DNA from: Myxococcales bacterium
Lineage (GTDB): Bacteria; Myxococcota; Myxococcia; Myxococcales; JAJYLH01
Assembly (NCBI GenBank): GCA_021787845.1
Contig: JAJYLH010000004.1
Span: forward strand, 1-64,000
Direction of reading: 5' to 3'
DNA: 64,000 nt
Below are positions 20,118 through 38,349 of the stretch, one piece after another. The translations under genes and the position numbers were made by a program. The first letter of the stretch is position 1. The number at the start of each line of letters is the position of its first letter. Under the pieces are notes generated by a model. The model made no database searches and was not told the DNA's origin. It saw only the letters and a list, made by a program, of their open reading frames with translations.

Positions 20118-23100
20118 CTACGTGCCGCCAGTCGAAAGCTTGACCTGGAAGCCGCGGGTGGAGCCGGTCTGCTGCCCGGTCGCCGGCGACAGCCACCAGC
20201 GCAGGGTGTTGCCCTGGTAGACCCCGGGGCCCTGGTAGCCCCACTGCGTCGTGCCGTCGTTGATGGTCGTCGAGGTGCCTTGCGGACCCGAGCCCGAGCT
20301 GGCGGAGGTGCCGTCGGCATTGCACACATAGGCGTTACTGAAGTTGCCGACCAGGTCGCCTGCCTTGTAGGCCGTCGACGTCTTCCAGGGCGCGACGAAG
20401 GTGAGCGTCCCGTCGGCGCTGACCGGAGCGGTGGTCGTCCACCCGTCCGCGGAGAGCCCGAACGTCAGGCCAGTCGCGGCGAGCGCGGCGCCCGCATCGA
20501 TGTTTCCGCTCGGCTGGAACGGAATCGGCCTGCCGACCGGAATCACCACCGCCTGCGCGGTCAGGAACGATCCGGTCGCGAGCGAGAGCACCGAAACCGA
20601 CCGGACCGTGTCGCCGTCGAGCGCCGTGGTCGCCGCGAGGGGCTTCGCCCAGGTGCCGTTGGGCGCCGCGTTGTTCAGGTCGTGGTTGTCGAGACGGATG
20701 CGGCCGTCACCGCCGCCCGGCAGCGCTCCCGAGGTGCCTCCGAAGGCTTGGAGCCGGCTGGCCACGCCCCCGAGGTCCAAGCTCTCGGCACGCAGGTAGA
20801 CGGTCCCGCCGGCGCCGCCGTAGCAGTAGCTCGGCGCGCCCAGGTTCCCGCTGTCGTCCCGACCCACGTTGCACAAGGCATTGCCGGAAGAATCGGTCGC
20901 GACGAGGCCGTTCGCCTGGATGCTGCCGCTGCCCGTCACCTTCAGCTCGGCGAAGGTGGCGAGGATGATCCCGCCGCCCGCCGCGCCGGCGAAGGACTGC
21001 TTCCAGAGCACCGTGCGGGCATCGCAGTAGTTGAACCAGGTGTCACCCGCGCAGGTCGAGCTGCACCAGGGACCAGGAGTGTTCGGCGACGAGCCATTGA
21101 CCCAGGGGCAGCCGGACGTGGTGCAGTCGATCGCGGTCGCCGTCGGATCGCAGGTCCACGGAGAGCCGCAGGCCCGCACCGAAGTCGACCACGACGGCGG
21201 GTTCGGGCTGCCGTCCCAACACGTCCCCGGGCTACTGCAACCGTAGATCTTGGAGCGGTCGCAATCGCTGGGCACCGTGTAGGTCGCAGCGGGGACATTC
21301 GCGGCCGACACGCCGTTTCCGTCGTAGCCATAGGACGTGCCGCTGTTGCAGCAGACAGCGGTGGCGGTCTTGCGATAGCACCCGTGGGACGCGTCGTAGC
21401 AGGACTCCGCCTCGCTCAGCGAGACCGATCCCGACCCGGCGCCGAGGAACAGGCTACCGAGCATCGCATCCCCGTACGTCGCGCCGGAGCCTTGCGGGTC
21501 GCTCGAGCCGCAACTGTCGGCGCCACGGGTCGCGTAGGAACCAGAAGCGCCGAAGAGGAGCTGATCGATCTGGTTGGGGTGGACAGATCCATCGTTGCTG
21601 CCGGGAGGGTTGCCTGTCGGTCCGTACTGCGCGGGATGCACGTCACCGCTGCCGCAGTAGGCGCCGCCGCCGGACGAGGTGCCGAGAGCGATGCTTGTTT
21701 TCAAGTCGCGCAGCCCTTCGGTGCCTTCGCCGGTCCAGCCGAGCGCGCCCGCGCCGACGTCGTTGCTCCAGTGCCAATCATTGCTCGGCCCTGGCGTCGG
21801 GGTCGTGTCGGTCGGCTTGCCCGCGCCGCGGTAGCCGTTGCCCGTCATCGTGATGGTGCCGCTCCCCGAGATGACGCTGAGGCTGTTGGTCGCGCTCCTC
21901 CCGTTCGCTTCGAAGACGAGCACGCCGCCGGTCGAGCTGCCGTCGGCGCTGTCGGGCCCAGCGAGCGGCGGCCCGGTCAGGGTGCCCTCGACGGTCACCT
22001 TCCGGTACTGCGGCACCCGGATGAAGCGCACCGACTGGCCGGCGAGGTCGTCCTGGGTGTTGCCCCCTTCGCCGAAGGTCCGGGTGATCGGCGCGGTGAG
22101 CTGGACCTGTCCGCCCTGGACACCCGCGACCGTCGCCGTCTCGTAGGCGCCGACGCTCGACACGTGGTTCAGGCCGCCCTGGATGTTGATGATCAGCACC
22201 CGGGTTCCCGGCGCGGCGAACGGCGCCGGGTCGGCGTCGATCGACACCCGGTCCCCGTCGATTTCCAAGACCCGCGCGCTCGCCATGTCGGGCCAGGCGC
22301 GGCCCGGCTGCACGTGCTGCGACAGGTCGACCGTCGTGTTGGCCGGAACGTCCAGGTCGCCGTCCCGCCCGTCGCCGGCGTCGAATGCGTTCAAGGTCAG
22401 CGTGCCCGTCTGCGTGTTCCACTGGGTGACGGGACCGCTCCCGTCCCTCGTGCGGGTGGTGGTGAAATCCTCGCCGACGTATCGGTCGGTGACCGACGCG
22501 TCGAAGGTGACCGAGAGCGCTCCCGAACAAGGCGCGTGGTCGCCGAGCTGCGCCTTGATCACCGACTGGACGGTCCCGCTCGCCAGGCTCGGCGCGCCGA
22601 TTTCGAAGTCGATGCGGTCGTCGACCACCTGAATCTGGAGCCCCGGCGCCGTCGGGTCGGCGTCGCCCGCGAGCAGCCTCGGCACCGCCGCCGGGTTCGA
22701 GGGCGAGTCGGCGGCGACGGTCACCATCGTCCCGTCCGGCACCGGCCGCCCGTCCGGCCCCACGAGCGGCGCGGAAACCACGAGGAAGGTCGATTGGCCG
22801 TCGGCGGGGAGGTTGCTCTTGGACACCACGGTGGGAATCGACAGGGAGATGGGCCCGCACTCGCCCAAGGCGTCGCAGCCGTCGCCCTGGCACGTGCCGA
22901 TGCAGCTCCCGAGCTTGGTGTAGCCGGTCGGCGGCCCCGCGACGCAGGTCTCCAGGTCGCCGCCGTTGCACCGGGTGGCGCCGACGTCGCAGGCGGCCGG
23001 CGGCGGCGCACAGGCGTCGGTGGAGCAGATCTCGCCGGTCGGGCACGCCTGGGGGTTGCCCCACTGGGTGCCGTCAGCGCTGCAGGTCTGCACCTGCCCA

Positions 23101-24377
23101 TCCGGAGTGCAGCGCGACAAGAGCGGGCTGCAGGTGTTGAAGGCGCAGTGGGCGGGGCTGCCGCCGTTGGCGCCGGCGACGCAGCCCGCGGCGCAGTACT
23201 GGTCGAAGACGAACCCCTGGCGGTTGGGCGCGCAGACCTGGAGGGCGGTGCCGGCCGCGCTGGGCGACGAAGCCGACGGATCGCAGCGGGTCTCGTTGGT
23301 GTTGCAGGCGGGCTGGGCACAACCGCTCCCGTCCGGCAGGCAGCCGTAGGCGCAGCTCGTCTGGGTCTGGGAGAGCCCGTCCGCCGAGCAGGTCAGGAGG
23401 ATGCCGGCCGAGCAGGTGGCTTGTCCCGCCTGGCAGATCGGGGCGACGCAGGAGGCGGTGTCGCTCCCGCCGGGACCGGTGCCGATGCTGAGCGTGCAGG
23501 TGCCGCTCCCGCTGTCGCCGGCGCAGCTCGTCGAATCCCAGGCGGTTCCGAGCGCGTTGCAGCGCTCGACGCTCTTGCCGTCGACGGAGCAGCGGGTGTC
23601 GCCCGCGTGGCAGGCCGCGTCCACGCACTCGGCGACCGAGCTGACGACGGAGCACTCGTGCGGGCAGGTGGTGACGACGGTCTCGGCGGAGCCGTCCGCC
23701 GCGCACTGGACGAGGCTCAGGCCGTCGCAGCGCAGGGCGTTCGGGGTGCAGGAGGTTTCGAGGCAGTTCGCGCTCTCCTTCGCTCCGGTCTGGCCGTTGT
23801 CGACGCAGTTCCCGTTGCAGGCCTGAGCGGTACCCCAGCCGCTCCCGTCGGACTTGCAGGCCTGGATGGTGCCGTCGGGAAGGCAACGCTGCTGGTAGGG
23901 AACACAGACGCCGGCGATGCAGGCGGCGGTGGTCGGGTCGCAGCCGTACTGGCACTTCTCCTTCGGCGCCCAGCCGGTGCCGTCGGCCTTGCAGACCATC
24001 ACCTCGTTCCCCTGGCACTGCATGAAGGACCCGGTGGCGCTGGGGCTCTTCGGGTCGCAGATCTGCGTGTGGCAGGCGACGGTGGTCGGGTCGCAGCCCG
24101 CGGCGCACTGGGTGGAGACAGTCCAGCCGGAGCCGTCGGACTTGCAGGTCTCGACGTTGGAGCCCTCGCACCGCTTGGCGCCGGAGGCGCACACCGGGAG
24201 GACGCCGCCGTCCGGGGACGCGACGCAGACCCCGTTCGCGCAGGTGAGGCCGGGGGCGCACGGCTTGGTCGCCGAGCAGGCCCCCCCGGCGCCGCTGTAG
24301 AGCGGGGGCGAGCTGCAGGCGAGCCCCGCGGCGAGGAGCATTCCGACGAGACCGAGCGAGAGAGTCCGAGAAGTCAC
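20118..24377 (-). CDS. Giant Cys-rich lipoprotein with Ig-like and Gly/Ser-rich domains
   Basis: The start is GTG 24377 with GGAGG five bases upstream; the product has 1419 residues. The signal peptide ends in lipobox GLAC. Residues about 30-500 are cysteine repeats of roughly 40-45 residues (patterns such as CxxGxxxxCxxDGxGWxxxxxC), about ten in number. A bacterial Ig-like domain follows (SNLPADGQSTFLVVSAPL and PVPDGTMVTVAADSPSNPA, about 510-600). The long C-terminal region is Gly/Ser/Asn-rich with beta character and contains more Cys clusters, and ends without a sortase or membrane anchor. It is probably a cell-surface or extracellular-matrix protein. Confidence 0.82.
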   Translation of the reverse strand: MTSRTLSLGLVGMLLAAGLACSSPPLYSGAGGACSATKPCAPGLTCANGVCVASPDGGVLPVCASGAKRCEGSNVETCKSDGSGWTVSTQCAAGCDPTTVACHTQICDPKSPSATGSFMQCQGNEVMVCKADGTGWAPKEKCQYGCDPTTAACIAGVCVPYQQRCLPDGTIQACKSDGSGWGTAQACNGNCVDNGQTGAKESANCLETSCTPNALRCDGLSLVQCAADGSAETVVTTCPHECSVVSSVAECVDAACHAGDTRCSVDGKSVERCNALGTAWDSTSCAGDSGSGTCTLSIGTGPGGSDTASCVAPICQAGQATCSAGILLTCSADGLSQTQTSCAYGCLPDGSGCAQPACNTNETRCDPSASSPSAAGTALQVCAPNRQGFVFDQYCAAGCVAGANGGSPAHCAFNTCSPLLSRCTPDGQVQTCSADGTQWGNPQACPTGEICSTDACAPPPAACDVGATRCNGGDLETCVAGPPTGYTKLGSCIGTCQGDGCDALGECGPISLSIPTVVSKSNLPADGQSTFLVVSAPLVGPDGRPVPDGTMVTVAADSPSNPAAVPRLLAGDADPTAPGLQIQVVDDRIDFEIGAPSLASGTVQSVIKAQLGDHAPCSGALSVTFDASVTDRYVGEDFTTTRTRDGSGPVTQWNTQTGTLTLNAFDAGDGRDGDLDVPANTTVDLSQHVQPGRAWPDMASARVLEIDGDRVSIDADPAPFAAPGTRVLIINIQGGLNHVSSVGAYETATVAGVQGGQVQLTAPITRTFGEGGNTQDDLAGQSVRFIRVPQYRKVTVEGTLTGPPLAGPDSADGSSTGGVLVFEANGRSATNSLSVISGSGTITMTGNGYRGAGKPTDTTPTPGPSNDWHWSNDVGAGALGWTGEGTEGLRDLKTSIALGTSSGGGAYCGSGDVHPAQYGPTGNPPGSNDGSVHPNQIDQLLFGASGSYATRGADSCGSSDPQGSGATYGDAMLGSLFLGAGSGSVSLSEAESCYDASHGCYRKTATAVCCNSGTSYGYDGNGVSAANVPAATYTVPSDCDRSKIYGCSSPGTCWDGSPNPPSWSTSVRACGSPWTCDPTATAIDCTTSGCPWVNGSSPNTPGPWCSSTCAGDTWFNYCDARTVLWKQSFAGAAGGGIILATFAELKVTGSGSIQANGLVATDSSGNALCNVGRDDSGNLGAPSYCYGGAGGTVYLRAESLDLGGVASRLQAFGGTSGALPGGGDGRIRLDNHDLNNAAPNGTWAKPLAATTALDGDTVRSVSVLSLATGSFLTAQAVVIPVGRPIPFQPSGNIDAGAALAATGLTFGLSADGWTTTAPVSADGTLTFVAPWKTSTAYKAGDLVGNFSNAYVCNADGTSASSGSGPQGTSTTINDGTTQWGYQGPGVYQGNTLRWWLSPATGQQTGSTRGFQVKLSTGGT

Positions 24378-25020
24378 AGCAACCTCCGACTCGCGGCGAT
24401 AGGGTGCCAAAGCCTTTCGGCGCCGCGAGGGCCGGGCACGGGGCGATCCGGAGCGTGGCGGATGGATCCGCTCCAAGGCATGAAAGGGTTTCAGAACCTC
24501 GCGGCGCGGTCAAGAGGGGAGGCGGTTCCACGGGCGGCGGTGCTCCGGCGGCAGGGAAAGACGCCCGCTGGCCGTCGGCTTCCGCTCTCGTGGCCGGGCG
24601 TCGTCGCCTGTGGAAGGCCATGCTGGTTTCACGGGCGAGGACGCTGCGAGGACGCCCGAGCCAGGGAGAAGAACCCGCGCTGAACCTGAACGAAGGCGAC
24701 GGCCCATCAAGGTAAAGTGGCGCGATGCTCGGCGGGACCCGGCTCGGGCAGCCCTCGGCAGAAGCCCTCATGCCACTCGAGAGGGCTCTCTCAGACCTCG
24801 CGAGAGACGTTCTCGTGATAGAGCAACGGACCGGCACGCCGGGCACGGACGACGGGCATCCCGCGACGCGGCCGGTGCGGCGGCTGGCGGCGGCGCCTGG
24901 TCCGGGCCTCGACGAGGGACGCGGCGAGCGAAAGCGACTCTTGCCGGGAGCTGCGCTGCCGCCCGCACGGCCAGTGAGACCGGTCACGCCCAGGCGATGG
25001 GCTTTCGCAGGAGGGAAGCG
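24378..25020. other. Gene-free stretch with a degraded M-family repeat
   Basis: This 643-base spacer lies between the divergent giant lipoprotein and thioesterase genes. Around 24589-24702 it resembles the M element at 49528 and its flank: both share GTGG-C-CGGGCGTC, then TTTCAC-GGCGAGGACGC, then CTGAACGAAG. I saw no credible gene. It must hold promoters for both neighbours, but none could be assigned with confidence. Confidence 0.4.
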
Positions 25021-25566: not shown

Positions 25567-26940
25567 ATGAAGCTGTCGACCACCCTCTTCGGCGAGACGT
25601 TCACCTTCCCGTCGGTCAAGGACGTGCTGGCGAGGGCGAACGAGCCGCGGTCAGGCGACAAGCAGGCGGGCATCGCGGCGCGCTCGATGCGGGAGATGGC
25701 GGCCGCGAAGTGGGTGCTCGCGGGCCTCTCGCTCAAGGAGCTGCGGGAGAACCCTTCGGTCCCGTACGAAATCGACGAGGTGACCCGGGTCCAGGAGGAC
25801 GACCTCGACGAGGCCGCGTATCGGAAGGTGTGCGGCTTTTCCGTCGCCGACCTGCGGGAGTGGATCCTCGACGACCAGACGACCGGCGAGGAGATTCGGG
25901 AAGTCTCGCCCGGGCTCACCGCGGAGATGGGAAGCGGTGTCGCCAAGCTCATGAGCAACCTGGACCTCGTCCTCGCGGGGCGGAAGATCCGGGTGGTGGT
26001 CCACTGCAACAACACGCTGGGGCTGGCGGGGCGCCTGAGCTCGCGCCTGCAGCCGAACCACCCGCGCGACTCGGTGGAGGGCGTCCTCGCGGCGGTGAAG
26101 GACGGCCTCTCCTTCGGCAACGGCGACGCGGTCATCGGCGTCAACCCGGCGACCGGCTCGGTCCAGTCGACCGCGGACATCCTGAAGGGCGTGAAGGATT
26201 TCATGCGCTGCTTCCGGGTGCCGACGCAGAACTGCGTCCTCTCGCACCTCACGGTGCAGATGGAGGCCCTCAAGAGGGGTGCCCCTCTCGATTTGATGTT
26301 CCAGTCCATCGCCGGGAGCGAAGGCGCGAACCGGAACTTCGGGGTGACGGTGAAGCTCCTCGACGAGGCATGGGACATGGCGAAGCGCGAGGGCACGGCG
26401 CAGGGGCCGAACGTCATGTACTTCGAGACCGGCCAGGGCACCGCGCTCTCGGCGAACGCGCATCACGACACCGACCAGCTCACGATGGAGGCGCGCACCC
26501 ACGTCCTCGCCCGCCGCTACCGGCCGTTCCTCCTGAACAGCGTGGTGGGCTTCATCGGTCCCGAGTACCTGCGCGACGCGAAGGAGATCACCCGTGCCGG
26601 CCTCGAGGACCACTTCGTCGGCAAGCTCCTCGGCATCCCGATGGGCTGCGACGCCTGCTACACGAACCACGCGAACGCCGACCAGAACGACCAGGAGAAC
26701 CTGGAGATGCTCCTCGCGAGCGCCGGCGTGAACTACCTGATGGGCATCCCGATGGGCGACGACGTGATGCTCAACTACCAGACGACGAGCTTCCACAACA
26801 ACGCGGCGCTCCGGGAGCTGTACGGCCTCAAGCCGGCGCCGGAGTTCGAGAGGTGGATGGAGGAGCTCGGCCTCTGGCGCGGCGGGCACCTGACCAAGCG
26901 CGCCGGCGACCCGAGCCTGTTTTCGACGAGGGCGGCGTAG
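25567..26940 (+). CDS. eutB: Ethanolamine ammonia-lyase large subunit
   Basis: EutB with EutC forms the adenosylcobalamin-dependent enzyme that converts ethanolamine to acetaldehyde and ammonia. The 457-residue length matches the family (about 453). Conserved stretches include VVVHCNNTLGLAGRLSSRLQ, GDAVIGVNPATGSV, FQSIAGSEGANRNFG, FETGQGTALSANAHH and GIPMGCDACYTNHA. ATG 25567 was chosen since the family begins MKL.TT.FG. No cobalamin riboswitch was recognised upstream; that space is filled by the T-family hairpin. Confidence 0.97.
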   Translation: MKLSTTLFGETFTFPSVKDVLARANEPRSGDKQAGIAARSMREMAAAKWVLAGLSLKELRENPSVPYEIDEVTRVQEDDLDEAAYRKVCGFSVADLREWILDDQTTGEEIREVSPGLTAEMGSGVAKLMSNLDLVLAGRKIRVVVHCNNTLGLAGRLSSRLQPNHPRDSVEGVLAAVKDGLSFGNGDAVIGVNPATGSVQSTADILKGVKDFMRCFRVPTQNCVLSHLTVQMEALKRGAPLDLMFQSIAGSEGANRNFGVTVKLLDEAWDMAKREGTAQGPNVMYFETGQGTALSANAHHDTDQLTMEARTHVLARRYRPFLLNSVVGFIGPEYLRDAKEITRAGLEDHFVGKLLGIPMGCDACYTNHANADQNDQENLEMLLASAGVNYLMGIPMGDDVMLNYQTTSFHNNAALRELYGLKPAPEFERWMEELGLWRGGHLTKRAGDPSLFSTRAA

Positions 26941-26972
26941 AGCGGGTCGGTCCAGGTAGACTGCGGTCCTTT

Positions 26973-27140
26973 GCGCTCTCCCGCTCGTCCCTCGACTGCG
27001 CTCGGGATGAGCGGGAGAGCGCTCGGGATGAGCGGGAGAGCGCTCGGGATGAGCGGGAGAGCGCTCGAGATGAGCGGGAGAGCGCTCGAGATGAGCGGGA
27101 GAGCGCTCGAGATGAGCGCGAGAGCGCTCGGGATGAGCGG
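26973..27140. repeat. C-family hairpin with seven-fold 21-bp tandem amplification
   Basis: A hairpin with a perfect 14-bp stem (GCGCTCTCCCGCTC at 26973-26986, inverted at 27009-27022) encloses the core CTCGACTGCGCTC. From 27001 its right arm is repeated as 21-bp units (CTCGGGATGAGCGGGAGAGCG) starting at 27001, 27022, 27043, 27064, 27085 and 27106, with a partial seventh at 27127. Later units have CTCGAGATG. The array lies between eutB and eutC. Confidence 0.9.
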
Positions 27141-27173
27141 AGCTGGCCAGGGTGGGAGGCGCGGATAGCGAGG

Positions 27174-28085
27174 ATGGCGGAGATCGATCGCAGCCTGATC
27201 GAAGCGGCGGTGCGCGAAGCGCTGGGCGAGATCCTGGCGGAGCAGCCGATCCCCCGTCCGTTTCGCGGCGATGCGCCGGCGCCGGCGTGCGACCGTCCGT
27301 TTCGCGGCGATGCGCCGGCGCCGGCGTGCGACGACGGCGTCTGCCGGCCGCGGGGGAAACCGAAGGGGCGGCCGTTCGACGAGCGCGAGCTCGACCGGGT
27401 GACGCGGGCGACCCCGGCCCGGCTCGCGCAGGGCAGGACCGGTACCCGTTACCTGACGAGCGTCTACATCGGCCTGCGAGCCGAACACGCCATCGCGCTC
27501 GACGCGGTGCGCAGCGAGGTGCCGCCGGACCTGCCGGAGAAGCTCGGCTGCCTCTCGCTCCAGAGCCGCTGCCAGGACCGCGAAGAGTACCTGCTCTATC
27601 CCGATCACGGCCGGCGGCTCGACGACGAGAGCCGGGCGCGGCTGGAGAAAGAAGGAACGCGCGGCGCCGACGTGCAGCTCATCCTCGGCGACGGCCTGAC
27701 CGCGTGGGCGCTGGAGGAGAACGGCCCGCGGCTCGTGCCCGCCCTCATCGCTGCCCTGGAGCAGGAGCGCTTCAAGGTAGGCCGGCCGCTCTTCGTCAAG
27801 TTCGCGCGGGTCGGCGTCCAGGACGACATCGGGGTGCTCCTGGGCGCGAAGGCGACCGCGATTTTCGTGGGCGAGCGGCCGGGGCTCGGGACCGGCGACT
27901 CCGGGTCCCTCTACACCGCTTACGCTCCCCGCCTGAACCAGGACAACGCCGAGAAGGATTGCATCTCGAACATCCGACCCTTGGGGCTCCCTCCGGAAGA
28001 AGCGGCGAAGGAGTGCGCGACGCTCCTCCGGCGCACGTTCCAGGCGGGCGGCGGCGGCACCCGGCTCGTCCGGAGCGGCCTGTGA
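27174..28085 (+). CDS. eutC: Ethanolamine ammonia-lyase small subunit
   Basis: EutC is the small subunit of the B12-dependent lyase; its C-terminal part helps bind the cofactor. Family motifs are RTGTRYLTSVYIGLRAEHAI, DVQLILGDGLTAWALEENG, ARVGVQDDIG, FVGERPGLGTGDSGSLY and NAEKDCISNIRP. The product is 303 residues. The N-terminal extension, which targets the enzyme to microcompartments in enterics, here contains a 13-residue segment duplicated exactly (RPFRGDAPAPACD, twice; 39-bp repeat at about 27255-27332). It is coupled to eutL by a GTGA overlap. Confidence 0.96.
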   Translation: MAEIDRSLIEAAVREALGEILAEQPIPRPFRGDAPAPACDRPFRGDAPAPACDDGVCRPRGKPKGRPFDERELDRVTRATPARLAQGRTGTRYLTSVYIGLRAEHAIALDAVRSEVPPDLPEKLGCLSLQSRCQDREEYLLYPDHGRRLDDESRARLEKEGTRGADVQLILGDGLTAWALEENGPRLVPALIAALEQERFKVGRPLFVKFARVGVQDDIGVLLGAKATAIFVGERPGLGTGDSGSLYTAYAPRLNQDNAEKDCISNIRPLGLPPEEAAKECATLLRRTFQAGGGGTRLVRSGL

Positions 28086-28804
28086 CGCGCGCGCTCGGGC
28101 TCACCGTCGAGGAGGCGCCGCGGGACCTCGTTCCCCTGCCCTCGCGGATCCTCGCCTGCCGGCAGATCGATCACGTCGACGCCCAACTCGCGAAGGCCTA
28201 CGGGCTCGACCCCGAGAAGCACGCCTCGGCCGGGCTCGTCACCGGCGACTCCGACGACGCGATGTACGTCGCGCTCGATCAGGCGACCAAGTTCGCCGAC
28301 GTCGACGTGGTCTTCGGCCGCTCCTTCTACGCCGGCGCGCGGCACAGCTCGGGCCCGTTCTCCGGGGAGATTCTCGGCATCGTCGCCGGCGCGCACCCGG
28401 AGCACGTCGCCGAGGCGCTGTGGAAGATCCGCGAAGGGCTCCAGGAGGGCATCTGGTTCCACACCTTCCCCGGCGAGGGCCAGCCGTCGTTCTTCGCCTA
28501 CGTCCTTTCCGAGTCCGGCCGCTACCTCGCGCCGCAGGTCGGGCTTGAGCCGGGCGCGCCGATGGCGTATCTCATCGCGCCGCCGCTCGAGTCGGTGGTC
28601 GGGGTCGACGCCGCGCTCAAGGCCGCGCGCGTCACGCTCGTCAAGTCGATGCCGCCGCCCTCGGAGACGAACTTCGGCGGCGCGTGGTTGGCCGGAGAGC
28701 TGCCGGAGGTCGAGGCGGCGGCGGTGGCGTTCGTCGAAGCCATCCGAGACATCGCGAAGAGCCCGCTCGCGGCCTTGCGGCGGCCTTCGCGGCTGAGGCG
28801 CTAG
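28082..28804 (+). CDS. eutL: Ethanolamine microcompartment shell protein EutL
   Basis: EutL is a trimeric shell protein with two tandem BMC folds and a gated pore. The family is clear from TGDSDDAMYVALDQATKFAD, VVFGRSFYAGARHSSGPFSG, GAPMAYLIAPPLESVVGVDA and MPPPSETNFGGAWLAGE. At 240 residues it is about 20 longer than the enteric protein, mostly at the N-terminus. The start is the GTG overlapping the eutC stop. No other shell gene (eutK, eutM, eutN, eutS) lies in the window. Tight coupling to eutBC argues that the protein is made with the lyase. Confidence 0.95.
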   Translation: MTRALGLTVEEAPRDLVPLPSRILACRQIDHVDAQLAKAYGLDPEKHASAGLVTGDSDDAMYVALDQATKFADVDVVFGRSFYAGARHSSGPFSGEILGIVAGAHPEHVAEALWKIREGLQEGIWFHTFPGEGQPSFFAYVLSESGRYLAPQVGLEPGAPMAYLIAPPLESVVGVDAALKAARVTLVKSMPPPSETNFGGAWLAGELPEVEAAAVAFVEAIRDIAKSPLAALRRPSRLRR

Positions 28805-29907: not shown

Positions 29908-32900
29908 TCAGGGGGACCTGACGAGCCGGAAACCGAGATCCGATGCGCACATTGTGGTACCGGTTGGCTGAAGGCGCGCTGCGGCCCGCAACATGATGGC
30001 ACTTGCGTCAAACGCGCCGCCACGAGCGACCCGGATTGAACCCGTCGACGAACCGGTTGGGTCGGTCACCGCCCCACTCGGATACGGTCCATACCAGTCC
30101 CACACCAGCTGCACTACGTTCCCGAGCATGTCGAACAGCCCCCACCCGTTCGGGGATTTGCCCCCTACCGGCTGAGGTCCACAATTTCCTTGGGGACCCC
30201 CTGACTGACAGGCCACGGCTCCCGAATAAGTCGCTTGGCTGTCCCCGCAGAACCACGCGATCGGATCAAGCACCGAGTTCGGCTCCGTGCAATCCATCGA
30301 GGGCGAGGTTCCGTAGTATGTTCCCGTCGTCGTTCCCGCCCGTGCTGCGTACTCCCACTCCGCTTCCGTTGGCAGCCGGTAGCCCGTGCAGGTCAGGCCG
30401 ACGAAATTCAAGCCTGTGCATGAGTAGCTCCCAGAACAGAAGCTTCCGGACCCACTTGGGCAGCCACCTCCCAACGTCCCGGTGCATCCCGTCAGTGTGT
30501 AGCACTGCTCCAAGCCTTCTTTCCGTGACAGCGCGTTCGCATATGTCACTGCATCCCACCACGAGACTTGCTCCACCGGGCAGTTGCCGCCACACGAATT
30601 GAAGTACGACGGGTTGGTTCCCATCAACCCTTGCCATTCGCCTTGGGTGACATCCGTCGCCTCCATGTAGAATCCATGGCTGATGGTCACCAGATGCTGT
30701 GTCTCATCGTTGCCACGTCCTGGCTCACTGGCCGGAGATCCCATCGTGAACGTTCCGGGCGGAATCCAAACATATCCGGCGGGCGCGCACCCGCCATTCG
30801 AACAGTGATCTCCGCTGATGCAGTCACTGTCCGCTTTGCACGAGGTCGGGCACGACTCCGACGAGCCGCTGCAAACGTATGGCGTGCAGCTCGGGTTCCC
30901 CGCGCTGCCGGCGCTGATGAGGCAATGTCCCTCTTGGCCGCTGACGTTGCAGACATCGCACGCGCCGGAGCACGAAAGGTCGCAGCAATAGCCATCCACG
31001 CAGTTGCCGCTCGAGCACTGACTCGCTGTGGTGCACTTCCCGCCGTCCGACTGTTTCGCAACGCAGGAGCTACCCGAGCAGTAGTTCCCGCCCGCGCAGT
31101 CGCTGTCCTTGCTGCACGACGTCGGACACGACGCCGACGAGCCGTTGCATGCGTATGGGCTGCAGCTCGGATTGCCCGCGCTCCCCGCGCGTGTCGGCGT
31201 GCACTTCCCAGCCGAGCCCGAGAGAGCACAAGTATCGCACGCACCGGAGCACGCCGTGTTGCAGCAGTAGCCAGCCACGCAGAAGCCGGTCGCGCACTGA
31301 TCTGCCGCCGCGCAGCTTTCGCCGTACGGCTGCTTCGCCTGGCACGAGCCGCCCGAGCAGTAGTCGCCGCTGGCGCAGTTGGAGTCGCTGTTGCAGGACA
31401 TCGGGCACGATGCCGACGAGCCGCTGCAAACGTATGGCGTGCAGCTCGGGTCCCCCGCGCTTCCAGCGCTCCGGGCGATGCACTGCCCGACCGACCCGCT
31501 GAGGTTGCACGCGCCACACGAACCGAAGCATGCCGTGTTGCAGCACACTCCATACGCGCAGAAGCCGCTGGAGCACTGATCTGCCGCCGTGCAGGCGACG
31601 CCATTCGACTTCTTTGCAACGCATGTGCTGCCACTGCAGTAGTCCACGCCGATGCAGCCGGCGTCCTGGCTACAGGACATCGGGCACGACATCGACCAGC
31701 CGCTGCAAACGTACGGGCTGCAGCTCGGGCTCCCCGCGCTGCCGGCGGAGACGTCGGTGCAAGTCCCGGCCCTGCCGCTCACGTTGCAGGCTGCGCACGG
31801 GCCATCGGAGCAGGCGGTGTCGCAGCACACGTCGCCGACGCAGTGACCGCTGGCGCACTCATCCGCGCTCGCGCAGGCCTGGCCGTTCGCCTTCTGCGCG
31901 ACGCACGAGCCGCCCGAGCAGTGGTCGCCGCTGGCGCAGTTGGAGTCGCTGCTGCAGGAGGTCGGGCACGACGCCGATGATCCGTCGCAAACATAGGCCC
32001 CGCAGCTCGGGCTTCCGGGGCTGCCGGCGCTCACCGCACTGCACTGGCCGACCGACCCGCCGAGGTTGCACGCGCCACACGAGCCGGAGCACGCCGTGTT
32101 ACAGCACACTCCATCCGCGCAGAAGCCGCTCGAGCACTGATTCGCCATCGTGCAGCTCTCGCGGTTCGACTTCTTCGCCACGCACGAGTTGCCCGAACAG
32201 TAGTCCCCGCTCACGCACTCGCCGTCGTCACTGCAAGACGTGGGGCAGGATGCGGACGCGCCGCCGCAAACGTAGGGCGCGCAACTCGGATGGCCTTCGC
32301 CGCCAGCGACGATGGCGCAGGTGCCCTGCTGCCCCGACACGTCACAAGCATCGCACGCGCCCGAGCACGACGTGTCGCAGCAGACGCCATCGACGCAGTT
32401 GCCGCTCGCGCACTCCCTCGCTGTGGTGCAACTCGTTCCGTTCGAGGCCTGCGCGACGCACTCGCCGTTCGCGCAGTACTTGCCGCTTGGGCAACTCGCG
32501 TCCGCGGCCGGGCCGTCGACCTGGCCGTCGCAGTCGTTGTCCTTGCCGTCGCACAGCTCAGGCGCCCCCGGATAGACCGTATGGTCCTGCGCCGCGCCGG
32601 GCGGGCAATTCGGGTCTGCCATCTCGAGGCAGTCGGGCCAGCCGTCACCGTCGCTGTCGAGGCAGGTCGCGACCCCACCTTCGCAGAACGCGTAGGGACT
32701 CATGTCCGCGCCGTGCGTCGCCGGATTGTCATTGCAATCGCTCTGCTCGCCGGCGACGCAACACCCTGGCTTCGAGCAGTCCTTTACGCCATCGCCGTCG
32801 GCGTCGCAGGCGGGGTCGGGCGCCGCGAGCTTCACCTCGACGAGCCCGGTCGTTCGAGTGTCGATGATGCCCGACCAGGCGGCGACGACCTTCTTTCCCG

Positions 32901-33228
32901 CGCTGTCGGTTCCGCGAACCAACGCGGACAGCTTTCGACCCGAGCTGCCCTGAGCGCGGACGACCTCCAGCACGAAGGGCGAGGTCGCCAGGTCGCGACC
33001 GGCCGTCGAGAAGTCTCCGGTGCTCGCGCCGCCGTTCGGGGGACCTGCGGGCCAAGCGTACGTCGAATCGCCGACCACGTTGCGCAGGCGCAGATGGAGT
33101 TCGGCGATGCCCGCGACGCCCGGCGCCGCGTGGATGTCGAGGTAGAGCGCGGTGTAGACATCGACCTTCTTCGGCGTGCATGCGGCGAGCAGCGAGGCGA
33201 CCAGCAGAGATCGAAGAACCCAGCGCAT
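29908..33228 (-). CDS. Giant Cys-rich lipoprotein ending in an FGE-fold domain
   Basis: ATG 33228 (MRWVLRSLL) has GGAGGG eight bases upstream; the product has 1106 residues with lipobox LLAAC. An N-terminal beta domain (about 20-150) is followed by DxDxDG repeats and a MopE-like LCDGKDNDCDGQVD motif (about 155-240). About nine CxxGxCVDGxCCDTxCSGxCxxC repeats run to about residue 830. The C-terminal FGE-like domain (GYVWIPPGTFTMGSP, LPTEAEWEYAARAG, GLFDMLGNVVQLV, RVARGGAFD) ends LGFRLVRSP. The segment after RGGAF lacks the catalytic Cys pair, so a binding role is more likely than catalysis. The base composition looks less GC-rich than its neighbours. Confidence 0.85.
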   Translation of the reverse strand: MRWVLRSLLVASLLAACTPKKVDVYTALYLDIHAAPGVAGIAELHLRLRNVVGDSTYAWPAGPPNGGASTGDFSTAGRDLATSPFVLEVVRAQGSSGRKLSALVRGTDSAGKKVVAAWSGIIDTRTTGLVEVKLAAPDPACDADGDGVKDCSKPGCCVAGEQSDCNDNPATHGADMSPYAFCEGGVATCLDSDGDGWPDCLEMADPNCPPGAAQDHTVYPGAPELCDGKDNDCDGQVDGPAADASCPSGKYCANGECVAQASNGTSCTTARECASGNCVDGVCCDTSCSGACDACDVSGQQGTCAIVAGGEGHPSCAPYVCGGASASCPTSCSDDGECVSGDYCSGNSCVAKKSNRESCTMANQCSSGFCADGVCCNTACSGSCGACNLGGSVGQCSAVSAGSPGSPSCGAYVCDGSSASCPTSCSSDSNCASGDHCSGGSCVAQKANGQACASADECASGHCVGDVCCDTACSDGPCAACNVSGRAGTCTDVSAGSAGSPSCSPYVCSGWSMSCPMSCSQDAGCIGVDYCSGSTCVAKKSNGVACTAADQCSSGFCAYGVCCNTACFGSCGACNLSGSVGQCIARSAGSAGDPSCTPYVCSGSSASCPMSCNSDSNCASGDYCSGGSCQAKQPYGESCAAADQCATGFCVAGYCCNTACSGACDTCALSGSAGKCTPTRAGSAGNPSCSPYACNGSSASCPTSCSKDSDCAGGNYCSGSSCVAKQSDGGKCTTASQCSSGNCVDGYCCDLSCSGACDVCNVSGQEGHCLISAGSAGNPSCTPYVCSGSSESCPTSCKADSDCISGDHCSNGGCAPAGYVWIPPGTFTMGSPASEPGRGNDETQHLVTISHGFYMEATDVTQGEWQGLMGTNPSYFNSCGGNCPVEQVSWWDAVTYANALSRKEGLEQCYTLTGCTGTLGGGCPSGSGSFCSGSYSCTGLNFVGLTCTGYRLPTEAEWEYAARAGTTTGTYYGTSPSMDCTEPNSVLDPIAWFCGDSQATYSGAVACQSGGPQGNCGPQPVGGKSPNGWGLFDMLGNVVQLVWDWYGPYPSGAVTDPTGSSTGSIRVARGGAFDASAIMLRAAARLQPTGTTMCASDLGFRLVRSP

Positions 33229-33407
33229 CAGGAAAACCCTCCGCATCCGGTCGATCGTGCAGACGAACGGCCGCATTCTGGCGCGTGCGGCGGAGAAGTC
33301 AAGCGGGTGTCGCACGCCGGCGGCGGGGCACCGAGACGAACCGGAGGACGCCCTCAGAGAGGTCTGAGGAACGCCCTCCGGCGTCGAGGTCGAGCGGAAC
33401 CAGCGCC

Positions 33408-36400
33408 CTACTGGGTCGGCCGAGTGCGCGGGCCGCCGAAGATCACGTACACGTCGCTCGTCGGGTAGACCTGTGAAACGAAGATGTCGGCGTAGCCGTC
33501 CCCGTTGAAGTCGCCGATGGCGATGCCCCGACCGAAATTGCTGCCGCTCGAGGGTCCGTCAATCACGGCTTCCGCTTCGCTCGGGTTGGAAGGCGTGGTC
33601 TCGGTCAGAGCGGTGCCGCCTCCGTAGAAGACGAAGACCGCACCGTTTCCACCGTCCGCACCCGGGGCACCCACGATCAGGTCTGGCTTGCCGTCACCAT
33701 CCAGGTCGCCCACGCCCACGGCGAAGCCGAAACTTTCGCCATCAAATTTGTCGGTGAAGACCTTGGTTCCGGAAGGCGGCGAAGACAGATCGATGCTCTG
33801 CGTTATCGGCAACGACACGAGGTAGACCGAGGAGGGGTTGTTTCCCCACGACCCGACCGGGACGATCAACCGTCTATCATGGGCCGTGGCGTTTCCGAAG
33901 TCGGCCACGATGGGCGCCGACCCTGGGGCGGGCTTCCCGATGGTCATGTCCGGCGCGCTCCAGAGCCGGTGCGTGTCCTGCGGGATGTTGCCGCCATAGA
34001 ACACGTCGGTGCCCCAGCCATCGTCCCACTCGGTGATGAAATCGTCCATGTAGTCGCCGTTCACGTCCCCCATCGAGGAGAACCGGAGGATGTTGCTGCT
34101 GCTCCAGGAGTTCGGGAAGTTGGGATACTCGCCGTCATCGACCCAGGTGGAAACCTCGCTTGCGGTTGGCGGATAGCCGACCGGGATGGTAACACCCTGC
34201 GGGTAGCCATTCTTGATTGGCGCTTGCTGCCAGGAACTGTTGCCCATGAGCACATACCCGGCCGAGTGGAATCTCTGGCGATGGTCCCATCCCCAAGAGG
34301 ACACGTAATTACTCCACACGAAGCCAAGCATGACGTCATTCACGCCGTTTCCACTGTAGTCACCAGAAACCAAGTCGCTAAAGCATTCGCCGTTCGGCGT
34401 ACCCCACGGTTGGCCAACGTCTTCGACGAGGTAATCAGCGTTGGCCCCCCCGTAACCCACATCGTTGAGGTTCGTGAGCGACGTCTTGTTGCGAAGTGCT
34501 GTGTTGCCCAGCTCGATGGCCACTCCGCCCTTGGTGTCGCTGGCGGTGCTGTCCTGGTAGCCTCCGAGGACAACGTCGTCGATGCCGTCTCCGTTGACGT
34601 CGCCGGCCGCGACCGAGACCACGGGCTCGCTATCGAAGCCGAGTTTGAGATCTCCATTGGGCAGCGTCCACGACACCGTGTCACGATTGCTCATCGATCT
34701 CCCCCAGACCACCGCCGCCGGCTGCCCAGCGAACAGCATGTCGGTCTTCCCGTCGCCATCGAAGTCTCCGATGGCCCAGCTTCGACCCGTGGTCGGATAG
34801 CCGGCGCAGTCGTAATTGCAGCCGCCGGTGAGCTGGCCGCACCCGAACGCCTCGTCGTAGGTCCCGCCGCCGGTGTTGCGGATGACCACCACGCGCGGTA
34901 TCTGGGTCTTGGTGTTGATGGTGCCGATGATTGGCGGCGGAATCGACTTGCAGATCCCGGCGATGCACTCCGAGTCGAGCATGCAGTCGGTATCCGTCGA
35001 GCAGGGCTGCCCATCGGGCGACCGGCAGGTGCCGCCGACGCAGGCCTGTCCTGCCGAGCAATCCGCGTTCGACTTGCAAGTCACTCCCGGCTTCGCCGCG
35101 CAGACGCCGGCCGCGCAGTCGTCCGCCGAGACGCAGTCCGCATCCATCGTGCAGGTCCCGCCCGTCGGCTCCTTGCAGACGTTGTTCTCGCAGGTCAGGC
35201 CCGTGAGGCAGTCGGCCGTGGTGGCGCAGGCGCCGCCCACCGGCTCCACGCAGACGTAGTCGACGCAGACCTTGTTCAGGCAACTGCCCTTGGCGCAGTC
35301 GGTGTCCACCGCGCACGCCGCCCCGCTGCCCTCGTTCACGCAATGGCCGTCCGCGCAGTCGGTGTCGTGGGTACAGGAGACTCCCGCGCCGGCCTGGCAG
35401 GTTCCGCTCTTGCAAACGTAGTTCGGCTGGCACTGGGTCGAATCCGTGCAGCTCCCGCCGACCGGCTCGCGGCAGGTGCCGTCGACGCAGGTCAAGGAGG
35501 CCCAGCAGGCGTCGGGGCCCGCGCAGGCGCCGCCGGGGCCCGCGCGACAGGTGCCCTGGTAACATTGGAGGCCCGTCGCGCAGTCGGCGCCCGAGGTGCA
35601 GGCGCCGCCGCTCGTCGCTTCGCACTTGCCGTTGTCGCAGGTCAAGCCGTTCGCGCAGTCGGTGTTGGTGGTGCAGGCGGTCCCCGTGCCGGCCTTGCAG
35701 GTTCCCGCATCGCAAGTCAGACCGGTGTCGCACTGATCGCTCGTCTGGCACTGGCCGCCGGCCGTGCTCACGCACTTGTCGAGCACGCACGCGAGACCGG
35801 TGCTGCAGTCGGCGTCGGCCACGCAGGCCGAGCCGAGGTTGCCCAGGCACTTGCCGTTCGTGCAGGTGAGCCCCGAGGCGCACGCGACCGTCGCGTTGCA
35901 GTCTCCGCCCGCGGTCGCGTCGCAGACGCCGTTCTCGCAGGTGTAGCCGGTCGTACACGGCGCGGTGGCCGAGCAGGGCGCGCCCCCCTCGCCCGAGCAG
36001 ATGTTGCCATGGCAGTCGACTCCCGGGACGCAGTCGGACACGCTCTGGCACGGCTGTCCGATGTTGCCGAGGCAGGTGCCGTTGACGCAGGTCGTGTCCG
36101 GCGCGCAGGCCACCGGAGGCGTGCTCGAGCTGGAGCAGGTGCCGCCCTGGTTCGCCGCGCAGGTTCCGTTGACGCAGGTGAACCCCGTCGAGCAGGAGAC
36201 CGTGGAGCTGCACGGCTCGCCGCCGGTCCCTTCGCAGATGTTGCCCTGGCAGGTGAACCCGGTCTCGCAGTCGGAGGTCTGCTGGCAGGCCGAGCCCATC
36301 GTGCCCTTGCAGATGCCGTTGACGCAGGCGAGCCCGGTCGCGCAGGGGATCTGCGGGTTCTGATCGGAGCAGGTGCCGCCGAGGTTCGCGGCGCACACGC

Positions 36401-38123
36401 CGTTCTCGCAGGTGAACCCGGTCGCGCACGGGGCCTGATCGTTGCACGGCTCGCCGCCCGTCCCTTCGCAGATGCCCCCGTGGCAGGTGAAGCCCGGCGC
36501 GCAGTCGGTGCTCTGCCCGCACGCGGCGCCCATCGCGCCCAGGCAGACGTTGTTGACGCAGGTCAAGGTCGACGCGCACGGCACCTGGGCGTTGCAAGTG
36601 CCTCCCAGGTTCGCGTGGCAGACGCCCGCGACGCAGGTGTAGCCCTGGGTGCAGGGGGCCGATTGACTGCACGGAGAGCCGCCCTGCCCCGAGCACTTGC
36701 CCGCGTAGCAGTCGTACCCGGGCGCGCAGTCGTCGGCGGTCTGGCAGGCGGTCCCGAGACCTCCCTTGCAGGTGCCGTTGACGCACGTCAACCCTTGCGC
36801 GCAGGAGACGTCGCTCCCGCAGGAGCCGCCCAGGGTCGCGACGCAGACCTGGTTCTCGCAGGTGAACCCGGAGGCGCAGGGCGCGGTGGGCGTGCACGGC
36901 CCGCCGCCCTTGCCCGAGCAGGTGCCACCGTAGCAGGCGAGACCCGGCGCGCAGTCGCCGTCCGTCTTGCACTGGGCGCCGAGCTGGCCGACGCAGGTGC
37001 CGTTGACGCAGGTGTAGCCAGTGACGCAGTTGAGCTGGGCGGAGCAGGTCCCGCCGGCGTTCACGTCGCAGATTCCGTTCTCGCAGGTGTAGCCGATCGC
37101 GCAAGGATCCTTGTCGGAGCAGGTCGAGCCGCCGTCGCCGCGGCACTGGGCGCCCTGACACTCGAAGCCGGGGGCGCAGTCGCTGTTCTGGTGGCAGGGA
37201 GAGCCCATGTCGCCCTGGCAGGTGCCGTTGACGCAGGTCAGCCCGGCCGCGCAGACCACCTGGCCGTTGCAGGTGCCGCCCAGGTTCGCGTCGCAGACGC
37301 CGGCCTCGCAGGTGAACCCGGTCGTGCAGGGGTTCTGGTCGCTGCAGCCAGACCCGCCCTCGCCCGCGCACTTGCCCGCGTGGCAGTCGTAGCCGGGGCC
37401 GCAGTCGGTGGCCGTCTGGCAGGGCGACCCGAGCTCGCCGCGGCAGGTGCCTTGGACGCAGGTCAATCCGGTCGCGCAGGACACCGTGTCGCTGCAGGCG
37501 CCGCCGACGTTGGAGTGGCAGACCCCGCCTTCGCAGGTCGACTCCGGCCCGCAGGGAACGGTGTCCGAGCACTGGGAGCCCGGCGCGCCGAGGCAGACCT
37601 TCGCGTGGCACTCGTAGCCCTGGGTGCAGTCCTTGTCGGTGCTGCACGTCGAGCCCGGCGTCGCGAGGCAGACGTTGTTGACGCAGTCGAGGTTCTTCGC
37701 GCACCGCTTGTCCTTGTCGTCGCAGGCGCCCTCCAAGCCGACCTTGCAGGCGCCGTCCTCGCACACGAGCCCCGGCGCGCACGCGATCTGGAGGTCGCCG
37801 CCGCAGGGAAGCGATGCTCCCGGCGCACAGACGCTGCTGACGCAGGTGTAGCCGGTCGCGCAGGGAATCTTGTCGTTGCAGGCCTGGGCCGCGGTCGCGA
37901 CGCAGGTGCCCGCCTCGCAGGTCGAGCCGGGCACGCAGGCGGCGACCTTGGTGTCGCAGGAGCTGCCCGGCAATGGCCGGCAGGTCCCCTGGTAGCACGT
38001 GTTTCCGGTGTCGCAGGCCGCTCCCTGGGTACAGCTCGCGCCGGCCCGGATGGGGGCTGTCGGCGAGCCGCAGGCGACGAGCAGCGCGGATACGCTGGCG
38101 AAGAGAACCGAGAGACGACGCAT
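33408..38123 (-). CDS. Giant Cys-rich lipoprotein with C-terminal FG-GAP repeats
   Basis: ATG 38123 has GGAGG six bases upstream; the product has 1571 residues, lipobox LLVAC. Residues about 25-1090 are some fifty short Cys repeats of about 21 residues (CxxGxxCxNGxCxxxxGxxC), organised in a higher-order repeat in which GYTCENGVC, LTCVNGTC and YDCHAGKC types alternate. The C-terminal 450 residues hold FG-GAP/VCBS-like calcium-binding repeats (FDGDGKTDMLFAG, GDVNGDGIDDVVLGG, GDLDGDGKPDLIVGAPGADG, GDFNGDGYADIFVSQ) as in integrin-type propellers. It is probably a large surface protein. The two domains differ in composition, the 3' third being less GC-rich. Confidence 0.85.
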   Translation of the reverse strand: MRRLSVLFASVSALLVACGSPTAPIRAGASCTQGAACDTGNTCYQGTCRPLPGSSCDTKVAACVPGSTCEAGTCVATAAQACNDKIPCATGYTCVSSVCAPGASLPCGGDLQIACAPGLVCEDGACKVGLEGACDDKDKRCAKNLDCVNNVCLATPGSTCSTDKDCTQGYECHAKVCLGAPGSQCSDTVPCGPESTCEGGVCHSNVGGACSDTVSCATGLTCVQGTCRGELGSPCQTATDCGPGYDCHAGKCAGEGGSGCSDQNPCTTGFTCEAGVCDANLGGTCNGQVVCAAGLTCVNGTCQGDMGSPCHQNSDCAPGFECQGAQCRGDGGSTCSDKDPCAIGYTCENGICDVNAGGTCSAQLNCVTGYTCVNGTCVGQLGAQCKTDGDCAPGLACYGGTCSGKGGGPCTPTAPCASGFTCENQVCVATLGGSCGSDVSCAQGLTCVNGTCKGGLGTACQTADDCAPGYDCYAGKCSGQGGSPCSQSAPCTQGYTCVAGVCHANLGGTCNAQVPCASTLTCVNNVCLGAMGAACGQSTDCAPGFTCHGGICEGTGGEPCNDQAPCATGFTCENGVCAANLGGTCSDQNPQIPCATGLACVNGICKGTMGSACQQTSDCETGFTCQGNICEGTGGEPCSSTVSCSTGFTCVNGTCAANQGGTCSSSSTPPVACAPDTTCVNGTCLGNIGQPCQSVSDCVPGVDCHGNICSGEGGAPCSATAPCTTGYTCENGVCDATAGGDCNATVACASGLTCTNGKCLGNLGSACVADADCSTGLACVLDKCVSTAGGQCQTSDQCDTGLTCDAGTCKAGTGTACTTNTDCANGLTCDNGKCEATSGGACTSGADCATGLQCYQGTCRAGPGGACAGPDACWASLTCVDGTCREPVGGSCTDSTQCQPNYVCKSGTCQAGAGVSCTHDTDCADGHCVNEGSGAACAVDTDCAKGSCLNKVCVDYVCVEPVGGACATTADCLTGLTCENNVCKEPTGGTCTMDADCVSADDCAAGVCAAKPGVTCKSNADCSAGQACVGGTCRSPDGQPCSTDTDCMLDSECIAGICKSIPPPIIGTINTKTQIPRVVVIRNTGGGTYDEAFGCGQLTGGCNYDCAGYPTTGRSWAIGDFDGDGKTDMLFAGQPAAVVWGRSMSNRDTVSWTLPNGDLKLGFDSEPVVSVAAGDVNGDGIDDVVLGGYQDSTASDTKGGVAIELGNTALRNKTSLTNLNDVGYGGANADYLVEDVGQPWGTPNGECFSDLVSGDYSGNGVNDVMLGFVWSNYVSSWGWDHRQRFHSAGYVLMGNSSWQQAPIKNGYPQGVTIPVGYPPTASEVSTWVDDGEYPNFPNSWSSSNILRFSSMGDVNGDYMDDFITEWDDGWGTDVFYGGNIPQDTHRLWSAPDMTIGKPAPGSAPIVADFGNATAHDRRLIVPVGSWGNNPSSVYLVSLPITQSIDLSSPPSGTKVFTDKFDGESFGFAVGVGDLDGDGKPDLIVGAPGADGGNGAVFVFYGGGTALTETTPSNPSEAEAVIDGPSSGSNFGRGIAIGDFNGDGYADIFVSQVYPTSDVYVIFGGPRTRPTQ

Positions 38124-38349
38124 GGATGACCTCCGCCTGGGGGGCGAGAAAAATCGCGTGTGAGGTTTCCCACGATTTCGCCGGACGGTCAAGCGCCATC
38201 TCGAAGTCAAGCGGTGGGAGGATGTTGGCGGGCGCTGGCCTTCGGGACAGGCGAGCGCGACGGCGCGAAGGCGAGCGCCCTCCGCGCGACGCTGGCGTCC
38301 CGGGTCGATCGGCTGGACCGCTTCCGGTCCTCGTCGTTAGGATGCCGTC

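What the first reader, a model, noticed from the sequence alone, without database searches (positions are those of the whole stretch)
25567..28804. Minimal ethanolamine set: eutB-eutC-eutL without the rest of the microcompartment
EutL is a BMC shell protein, and here it is translationally coupled (GTGA) to EutC, but no other shell protein, reactivase eutA, acetaldehyde dehydrogenase or permease lies nearby. Either the remaining parts are elsewhere, or EutL works in a reduced assembly or an alternative role with the lyase. A shell trimer made only with the lyase would be unusual.
Basis: partly seen in the sequence, partly recalled or inferred. Interest (0 to 1): 0.62.

Follow-up and report, generated by a model that had tools for sequence, protein, structure and literature searches.

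The report
Ethanolamine add-on for a bacterial microcompartment
The three ethanolamine genes look alone only locally: the same genome holds, in three other places, the shell and aldehyde enzyme of a known type of bacterial protein organelle, so they are most likely a plug-in that lets that organelle also use ethanolamine, an arrangement already described in 2021.

Summary
In detail: eutB (25567-26940), eutC (27174-28085) and eutL (28082-28804, GTGA overlap) are real, and no other shell gene, EutA or aldehyde dehydrogenase was found in the window. "Without the rest of the microcompartment" fails for the genome. Elsewhere lie BMC-H, BMC-Tdp, one BMC-P and an EutE/PduP-type aldehyde dehydrogenase (same contig, 165 kb away), a BMC-T (C61), and two BMC-P plus a class II aldolase (C36): a consolidated Haliangium ochraceum-type (HO) BMC. 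Sutter et al. 2021 already describe satellite "EUT modules" of HO BMCs.

New here: EutL occurs in 34 of 195 phylum genomes, and 33 of the 34 also carry BMC-P. EutC has an N-terminal encapsulation-peptide-like extension in 10 of 10 BMC-bearing relatives and in none of 4 BMC-free eutBC genomes. EutA is absent, although the 2021 description names it. EutL of this clade ends in a conserved Arg-rich tail gained once. Best reading: EutBC is targeted into the HO shell by the EutC peptide, EutL supplies a matching shell tile, and the shared aldehyde dehydrogenase takes the acetaldehyde. One genome (G109) carries EutL with no other shell gene found. A variant of a known kind.

The parts
25567..26940 (+). 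eutB, ethanolamine ammonia-lyase large subunit (457 aa)
   Evidence: Pfam EutB 656 bits; PDB 2qez E 7e-173, 3abo E 6e-164, aligned over nearly the whole length
26998..27140 (.). tandem repeat, 21-bp unit x 6.8, in the eutB-eutC gap; role unknown
   Evidence: Tandem Repeats Finder, 96% matches
27174..28085 (+). eutC, ethanolamine ammonia-lyase small subunit (303 aa)
   Evidence: Pfam EutC 224 bits; 3abo_B E 1.8e-46
27174..27245 (+). encapsulation-peptide-like N-terminal segment of EutC (residues 1-24)
   Evidence: the core motif starts after 79 residues here, after 61-89 in 10 of 10 BMC genomes, after 14-23 in 4 of 4 BMC-free eutBC genomes; hydrophobic moment of the 10 as a group 1 of 2000 shuffles, but this sequence alone is not significant (2954 of 5000)
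27246..27410 (+). linker between EutC peptide and core; holds an exact 39-bp (13-aa) duplication at 27254-27332
28082..28804 (+). eutL, EutL-type tandem BMC shell protein (240 aa), GTG start overlapping the eutC stop by 4 nt
   Evidence: PRK15405 231 bits over cut-off 198; EutL structures in PDB, E about 1e-48; model pLDDT 93.1
28772..28801 (+). clade-specific Arg-rich C-terminal tail of EutL (last 10 residues)
   Evidence: 37 of 80 GTDB EutL rows and the window have the longer end; 2 changes on the tree, 0 of 500 shuffles as low; predicted ordered, block mean pLDDT 89

Best explanation
The three genes are a satellite EUT module of a Haliangium-type (HO) bacterial microcompartment whose other parts lie at three other places in the same genome. 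EutB and EutC make adenosylcobalamin-dependent ethanolamine ammonia-lyase. An N-terminal peptide on EutC, joined by a long linker, targets the lyase into the HO shell. EutL, translated with EutC through the GTGA overlap, adds a gated trimeric tile to that shell. Acetaldehyde made inside goes to the shared EutE/PduP-type aldehyde dehydrogenase, which also carries an encapsulation-peptide-like N terminus. Ethanolamine would so be a second substrate of an organelle whose own signature enzyme is probably the class II aldolase. Shown by sequence: the genes, the scattered shell set, the aldehyde dehydrogenase, the EutC extension and its link with BMC genomes, and an adenosyltransferase. Inferred: co-assembly, targeting, gating and substrate.
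For: (1) Same genome: BMC-H, BMC-Tdp and BMC-P whose best natural PDB matches belong to the 5v74/5djb shell set (molecule names HO-5815 and HO-5816 shown, that they are H. ochraceum is recalled), BMC-T at C61, two BMC-P with a class II aldolase at C36, aldehyde dehydrogenase PRK15398 644 bits over cut-off 403, cobalamin adenosyltransferase 204 bits. (2) Phylum: EutL in 34 of 195 genomes, BMC-P in 73 of 195, both in 33; Fisher P 7e-16 without correction for relatedness; 32 of the 34 have a strong BMC-H match. (3) All 14 genomes with EutC above 220 bits among 99 relatives: the 10 with BMC genes have EutL and the EutC extension, the 4 without BMC genes have neither. (4) Literature, passages only: EUT modules of HO BMCs (PMC8217296); EutC residues 2-19 needed to place EutBC, and EutL needed for shell-cargo association, in Salmonella (PMC12487888).
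Against: No EutA, no PduL phosphotransacylase and no EutQ found in this genome, so cofactor recycling, lyase reactivation and the known shell-cargo adaptor are unaccounted for. The window's EutC peptide alone does not pass the hydrophobic-moment test. The genes lie 165 kb from the main locus; common regulation was not shown, and Rfam finds no riboswitch in the window. G109 has EutL and no other shell gene found. Not every HO-like genome has the module: G001, G008, G026, G029 and G067, 5 of the 15 genomes with strong BMC-H matches, have no EutC.
Confidence: 0.85

Rival explanations
1. EutL works with the lyase alone, in a reduced assembly or a non-shell role such as a cofactor-binding trimer.
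For: Nearest neighbours contain no shell gene; 69 of 80 GTDB loci have no other shell or AldDH gene in the flank held (many flanks cut by contig ends). G109 has EutL as its only BMC-domain match and no BMC-P.
Against: 33 of 34 EutL genomes in the phylum carry BMC-P, 32 of 34 BMC-H. Among the 14 genomes compared the EutC extension is seen only where BMC genes exist. G109 is a 92% complete MAG, so absence is weak evidence.
Confidence: 0.05
2. EutBC works free in the cytosol, as in BMC-less species, and EutL is a decaying passenger.
For: BMC-less eutBC exists in 4 genomes of the same order; Acinetobacter EutBC works with no metabolosome and no EutA (PMC9426561, passages).
Against: EutL is intact and conserved (72% mean column identity in 10 rows), and joined to eutC by an overlap or a gap of at most 1 nt in 9 of 10 loci. 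The 4 BMC-free EutC lack both the extension and EutL.
Confidence: 0.05
3. The BMC's real substrate is ethanolamine, the aldolase being the side activity; that is, a dispersed EUT3-like BMC.
For: Integrated loci exist: L122 (Bdellovibrionota) has eutBCL next to BMC-H, BMC-P, AldDH, BMC-T and BMC-Tdp; L131 and L128 have EutL near HO-like shell genes.
Against: 40 of 73 BMC-P genomes of the phylum have no EutL, and the own aldolase overlaps the end of the second BMC-P gene and has a peptide-like C-terminal end (that end does not pass the moment test alone), so ethanolamine looks optional.
Confidence: 0.05

Closest known systems
Satellite 'EUT modules' of HO, SPU3 and SPU6 BMCs (Sutter et al. 2021, PMC8217296, passages)
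   Same: EutB, EutC and an EutL-type BMC-Tsp encoded away from the main BMC locus, in a genome with an HO-type BMC
   Different: no EutA, which the paper names as part of the module; EutL of this clade carries an Arg-rich C-terminal tail, not looked up in print beyond the listings
[quoted passage not shown]
   Same: one BMC-H, BMC-Tdp, BMC-P triplet, AldDH, satellite of two BMC-P plus aldolase
   Different: only one BMC-Tdp and one other BMC-T found besides EutL (H. ochraceum has three BMC-T, PMC4207490 passage); AldDH tree position not tested
Classical EUT1 operon of Salmonella and E. coli
   Same: EutB, EutC with N-terminal peptide, EutL
   Different: no EutA, EutQ or PduL found; the other shell genes are of HO type and elsewhere
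BMC-less short eut operons (Acinetobacter, Pseudomonas; PMC9426561, PMC5821096, passages)
   Same: EutBC; Acinetobacter has no EutA either
   Different: those have no shell genes; in the four BMC-less genomes of this order EutC lacks the extension

Membership tests
EUT module (satellite of HO/SPU BMC) | EutB and EutC present | tested here: met
EUT module (satellite of HO/SPU BMC) | EutL-type BMC-Tsp shell protein | tested here: met
   one curated cut-off missed (TIGR04502, 241 of 300), PRK15405 passed
EUT module (satellite of HO/SPU BMC) | distal from a main locus with BMC-H and BMC-P in the same genome | tested here: met
   main locus at about C92:190.8-193.9 kb, module at 25.6-28.8 kb
EUT module (satellite of HO/SPU BMC) | EutA present (named with EutB/C in the 2021 text) | tested here: not met
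   own hits are two FtsA proteins; in 19 genomes only partial hits, the longest about 117 of 475 positions; EutA in 6 of 80 EutL loci, all Propionibacteriaceae. Hence filed as a variant
HO-type BMC | BMC-P triplet | tested here: met
   three BMC-P
HO-type BMC | HO-like BMC-Tdp and BMC-H | tested here: met
   best natural PDB matches 5v74 (HO-5816) and 5djb
HO-type BMC | acylating aldehyde dehydrogenase at the main locus | tested here: met
   PRK15398 644 bits
HO-type BMC | AldDH groups with HO/SPU5/SPU7 in a tree | not tested
   no reference set of AldDH at hand
HO-type BMC | shell assembles in the cell | not testable with these tools
   needs microscopy or purification
EUT1-type BMC | contiguous operon with EutA, EutQ and the eut shell genes | tested here: not met

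The most novel reading that the evidence does not exclude
The module is a self-contained cartridge that re-purposes a foreign shell: EutC brings its own targeting peptide, and this clade's EutL gained once a conserved Arg-rich C-terminal tail that keys the tile into HO-type shells or holds the lyase beneath it, doing without EutA and, here, without EutQ.
Probability: 0.25. Interest if true: 0.5.

Novelty: new variant of a known kind. Interest (0 to 1): 0.3.

Why it matters
The HO shell is a main structural model of BMC shells, yet its natural function is called enigmatic (PMC8217296, passage). A module that pairs a known substrate enzyme with a shell tile, and whose presence tracks the shell across a phylum, gives a testable native cargo and a natural example of adding a new substrate to an existing organelle. 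The EutL tail is a small, concrete handle on how a tile is matched to a shell.

Tried and rejected
Rejected: EutA-family hits in the own genome (C131, C128) are two FtsA proteins. Rejected: a PduL phosphotransacylase (none); EutQ in the own genome (none; 4 of 10 module genomes have a match). Rejected: conservation of the thioesterase and esterase next to the module (no tblastn hit at 1e-5 in 14 loci from relatives). Rejected: genes between the module genes in wide-gap loci as part of the system: the 7 loci inspected held no EutA. Led nowhere: the hydrophobic-moment test on the window's EutC peptide alone; only the group of 10 passes. The aldolase C-terminal segment also does not pass alone (2297 of 5000). 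Rfam: no match in the window.

Rows dropped before counts: the phylum search was asked for 400 genomes and returned 195. The EutC/BMC comparison used all 14 genomes above 220 bits; the other 31 of the 45 EutC-positive genomes score about 90-108 bits and were not inspected except one (L090, 30-34% identity); three more of them were in the BMC search along with others. One search examined 34 of the 99 genomes, chosen by me (all 14, plus 20 others). In one search, 90 loci encoded a relative and 80 were kept by the tool. The moment test covered 3 of the 4 BMC-free EutC.

Full report
Observation. eutB (25567-26940), eutC (27174-28085) and eutL (28082-28804) are present as described. eutL starts with GTG inside the eutC stop codon (GTGA). 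EutL passes one of two curated EutL models (PRK15405 231 bits over 198; TIGR04502 241 below 300), and it matches four distinct PDB sequences, three named EutL and one 'Microcompartments protein'. EutB and EutC match solved ethanolamine ammonia-lyases. In the window no other BMC domain, no BMC-P, no EutA, no EutH and no aldehyde dehydrogenase was found.

The rest of the genome. G000 (6.24 Mb, 153 contigs, 98% complete) holds BMC-domain genes elsewhere. On the same contig, C92, about 165 kb downstream on the other strand, lie a sigma-54/FHA regulator, a 214-aa BMC-Tdp, a 97-aa BMC-H, a 96-aa BMC-P and a 492-aa aldehyde dehydrogenase of the EutE/PduP kind. On C61 a 188-aa tandem BMC-T is the only shell gene in the 20 kb read. 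On C36 two BMC-P genes and a class II aldolase follow each other, the aldolase ending in a peptide-like stretch. The best natural PDB matches of the Tdp, H and P1 proteins are entries of the shell set 5v74/5djb, whose molecule names include HO-5815 and HO-5816; that these are H. ochraceum is recalled. The two C36 BMC-P proteins are more distant from all solved ones, and the C61 protein is about as close to PduT-like chains as to 5dih. [quoted passage not shown]

Already in print. Sutter et al. 2021 state that some satellite loci of HO, SPU3 and SPU6 BMCs resemble EUT modules made of EutA/B/C and an EutL-type BMC-Tsp, and suggest that they extend the main BMC to ethanolamine (PMC8217296, passages; supplement not seen). 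Axen et al. 2014 defined satellite loci and listed the H. ochraceum locus among metabolosomes with an incomplete core (PMC4207490, passages).

How tight is the link to the shell? In the 195 genomes that a phylum search returned, EutL occurs in 34 and BMC-P in 73; reading the two tables together, 33 of the 34 EutL genomes have BMC-P. The Fisher P value of 7e-16 ignores relatedness. 32 of the 34 also have a strong BMC-H match; G157 has BMC-P and BMC-T but no BMC-H found. The clear exception is G109 (92% complete): EutL is its only BMC match and it has no BMC-P. Among 80 GTDB loci from a scan with the EutL alignment (90 found, 80 kept) 66 have B, C and L, 73 have C and L, and 11 have other shell or AldDH genes in the flank held: eight Propionibacteriaceae or Propionibacterium-like plus L122, L128 and L131. 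L122 carries eutBCL beside a whole HO-like shell and AldDH.

Internal control for targeting. Of 99 genomes searched for EutC, 14 score above 220 bits. Ten have BMC genes, four do not. All ten have EutL, and an EutC with 61-89 residues ahead of the core motif; the four have no EutL and 14-23 residues (the G062 start was chosen as the GTG that does not overlap eutB). As a group the ten N-terminal segments have a hydrophobic moment reached by 1 of 2000 shuffles; individually most do not stand out, the window's among them (2954 of 5000). The genome's AldDH N terminus does (49 of 5000). In Salmonella, deleting EutC residues 2-19 leaves EutB cytosolic, and EutL and EutQ are needed for shell-cargo association (PMC12487888, passages). 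Encapsulation peptides are short helices joined by a disordered linker (PMC12339742, passages).

Differences from the described module. EutA is missing: the two EutA-family hits of G000 are FtsA proteins, the other hits among 19 genomes are partial, and a full EutA (L154, 531 bits) used as query finds relatives only in six Propionibacteriaceae loci among 106 stretches. EutC and EutL overlap by 4 nt in 6 of 10 loci and by 1 nt in 2, with gaps of 1 and 81 nt in the others. EutL of this clade is up to ten residues longer at the C terminus than other EutL, with a conserved R-P-x-R-x-R-R-like end: 37 of 80 GTDB rows plus the window. On an 81-row tree the label needs 2 changes, no shuffle of 500 as few, best read as one gain and one loss (L138). 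The model of the window EutL (mean pLDDT 93.1) places the last ten residues with mean 89. The tail's function is unknown.

Mechanism. Shown: genes, shell set, AldDH, adenosyltransferase, co-occurrence, EutC extension. Inferred: EutBC enters the HO shell through the EutC peptide; EutL joins the shell as a gated tile; acetaldehyde is taken by the AldDH. Reactivation of the lyase without EutA is open; Acinetobacter EutBC manages without it (PMC9426561, passages).

Verdict. An EutA-less variant of a known arrangement. It is a fair catch from raw sequence, but the puzzle is solved by the rest of the genome and by a 2021 catalogue. The tail of EutL and the G109 exception are what remains open.

Noticed in passing
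28772-28801; L101-L136, L139 and others: Conserved Arg-rich C-terminal tail on EutL, present in 37 of 80 GTDB rows plus the window, best read as gained once on the tree; function unknown.
   Followed up: partly
26998-27140: 21-bp tandem repeat, 6.8 copies, between eutB and eutC.
   Followed up: partly
27254-27332: Exact 39-bp duplication inside the eutC linker, in frame (13 aa), so linker length may vary by slippage.
   Followed up: no
L185 (G109:C127): EutBCL in a 92% complete MAG of the same phylum but not the same class, with no other BMC-domain or BMC-P match. L104 appears to be the same contig (same length 49691 and position); its EutL is 70% identical to the window's, so transfer or misbinning is possible.
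   Followed up: partly
L086 1-8956 (G096:C215); L110, L111, L121: In some Archangium-like genomes eutB is not found next to eutC; in G096 about 8 kb of unrelated genes separate a eutB 3' end from eutC.
   Followed up: no
20118-24476, 29908-33315 and 33408-38210, - strand: Three very large open frames flank the module; the second has FGE-sulfatase and DUF7107 domains, the third EB-module, DUF7107 and FG-GAP repeats, the first no Pfam match.
   Followed up: partly
L090 and the other EutC hits of about 90-108 bits: A second, distant EutB/EutC-like pair (30-34% identity in L090) in many genomes of the order.
   Followed up: no
L007 6829-7767, - strand: A metallo-beta-lactamase-fold protein directly behind the AldDH of the HO main locus.
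   Followed up: no
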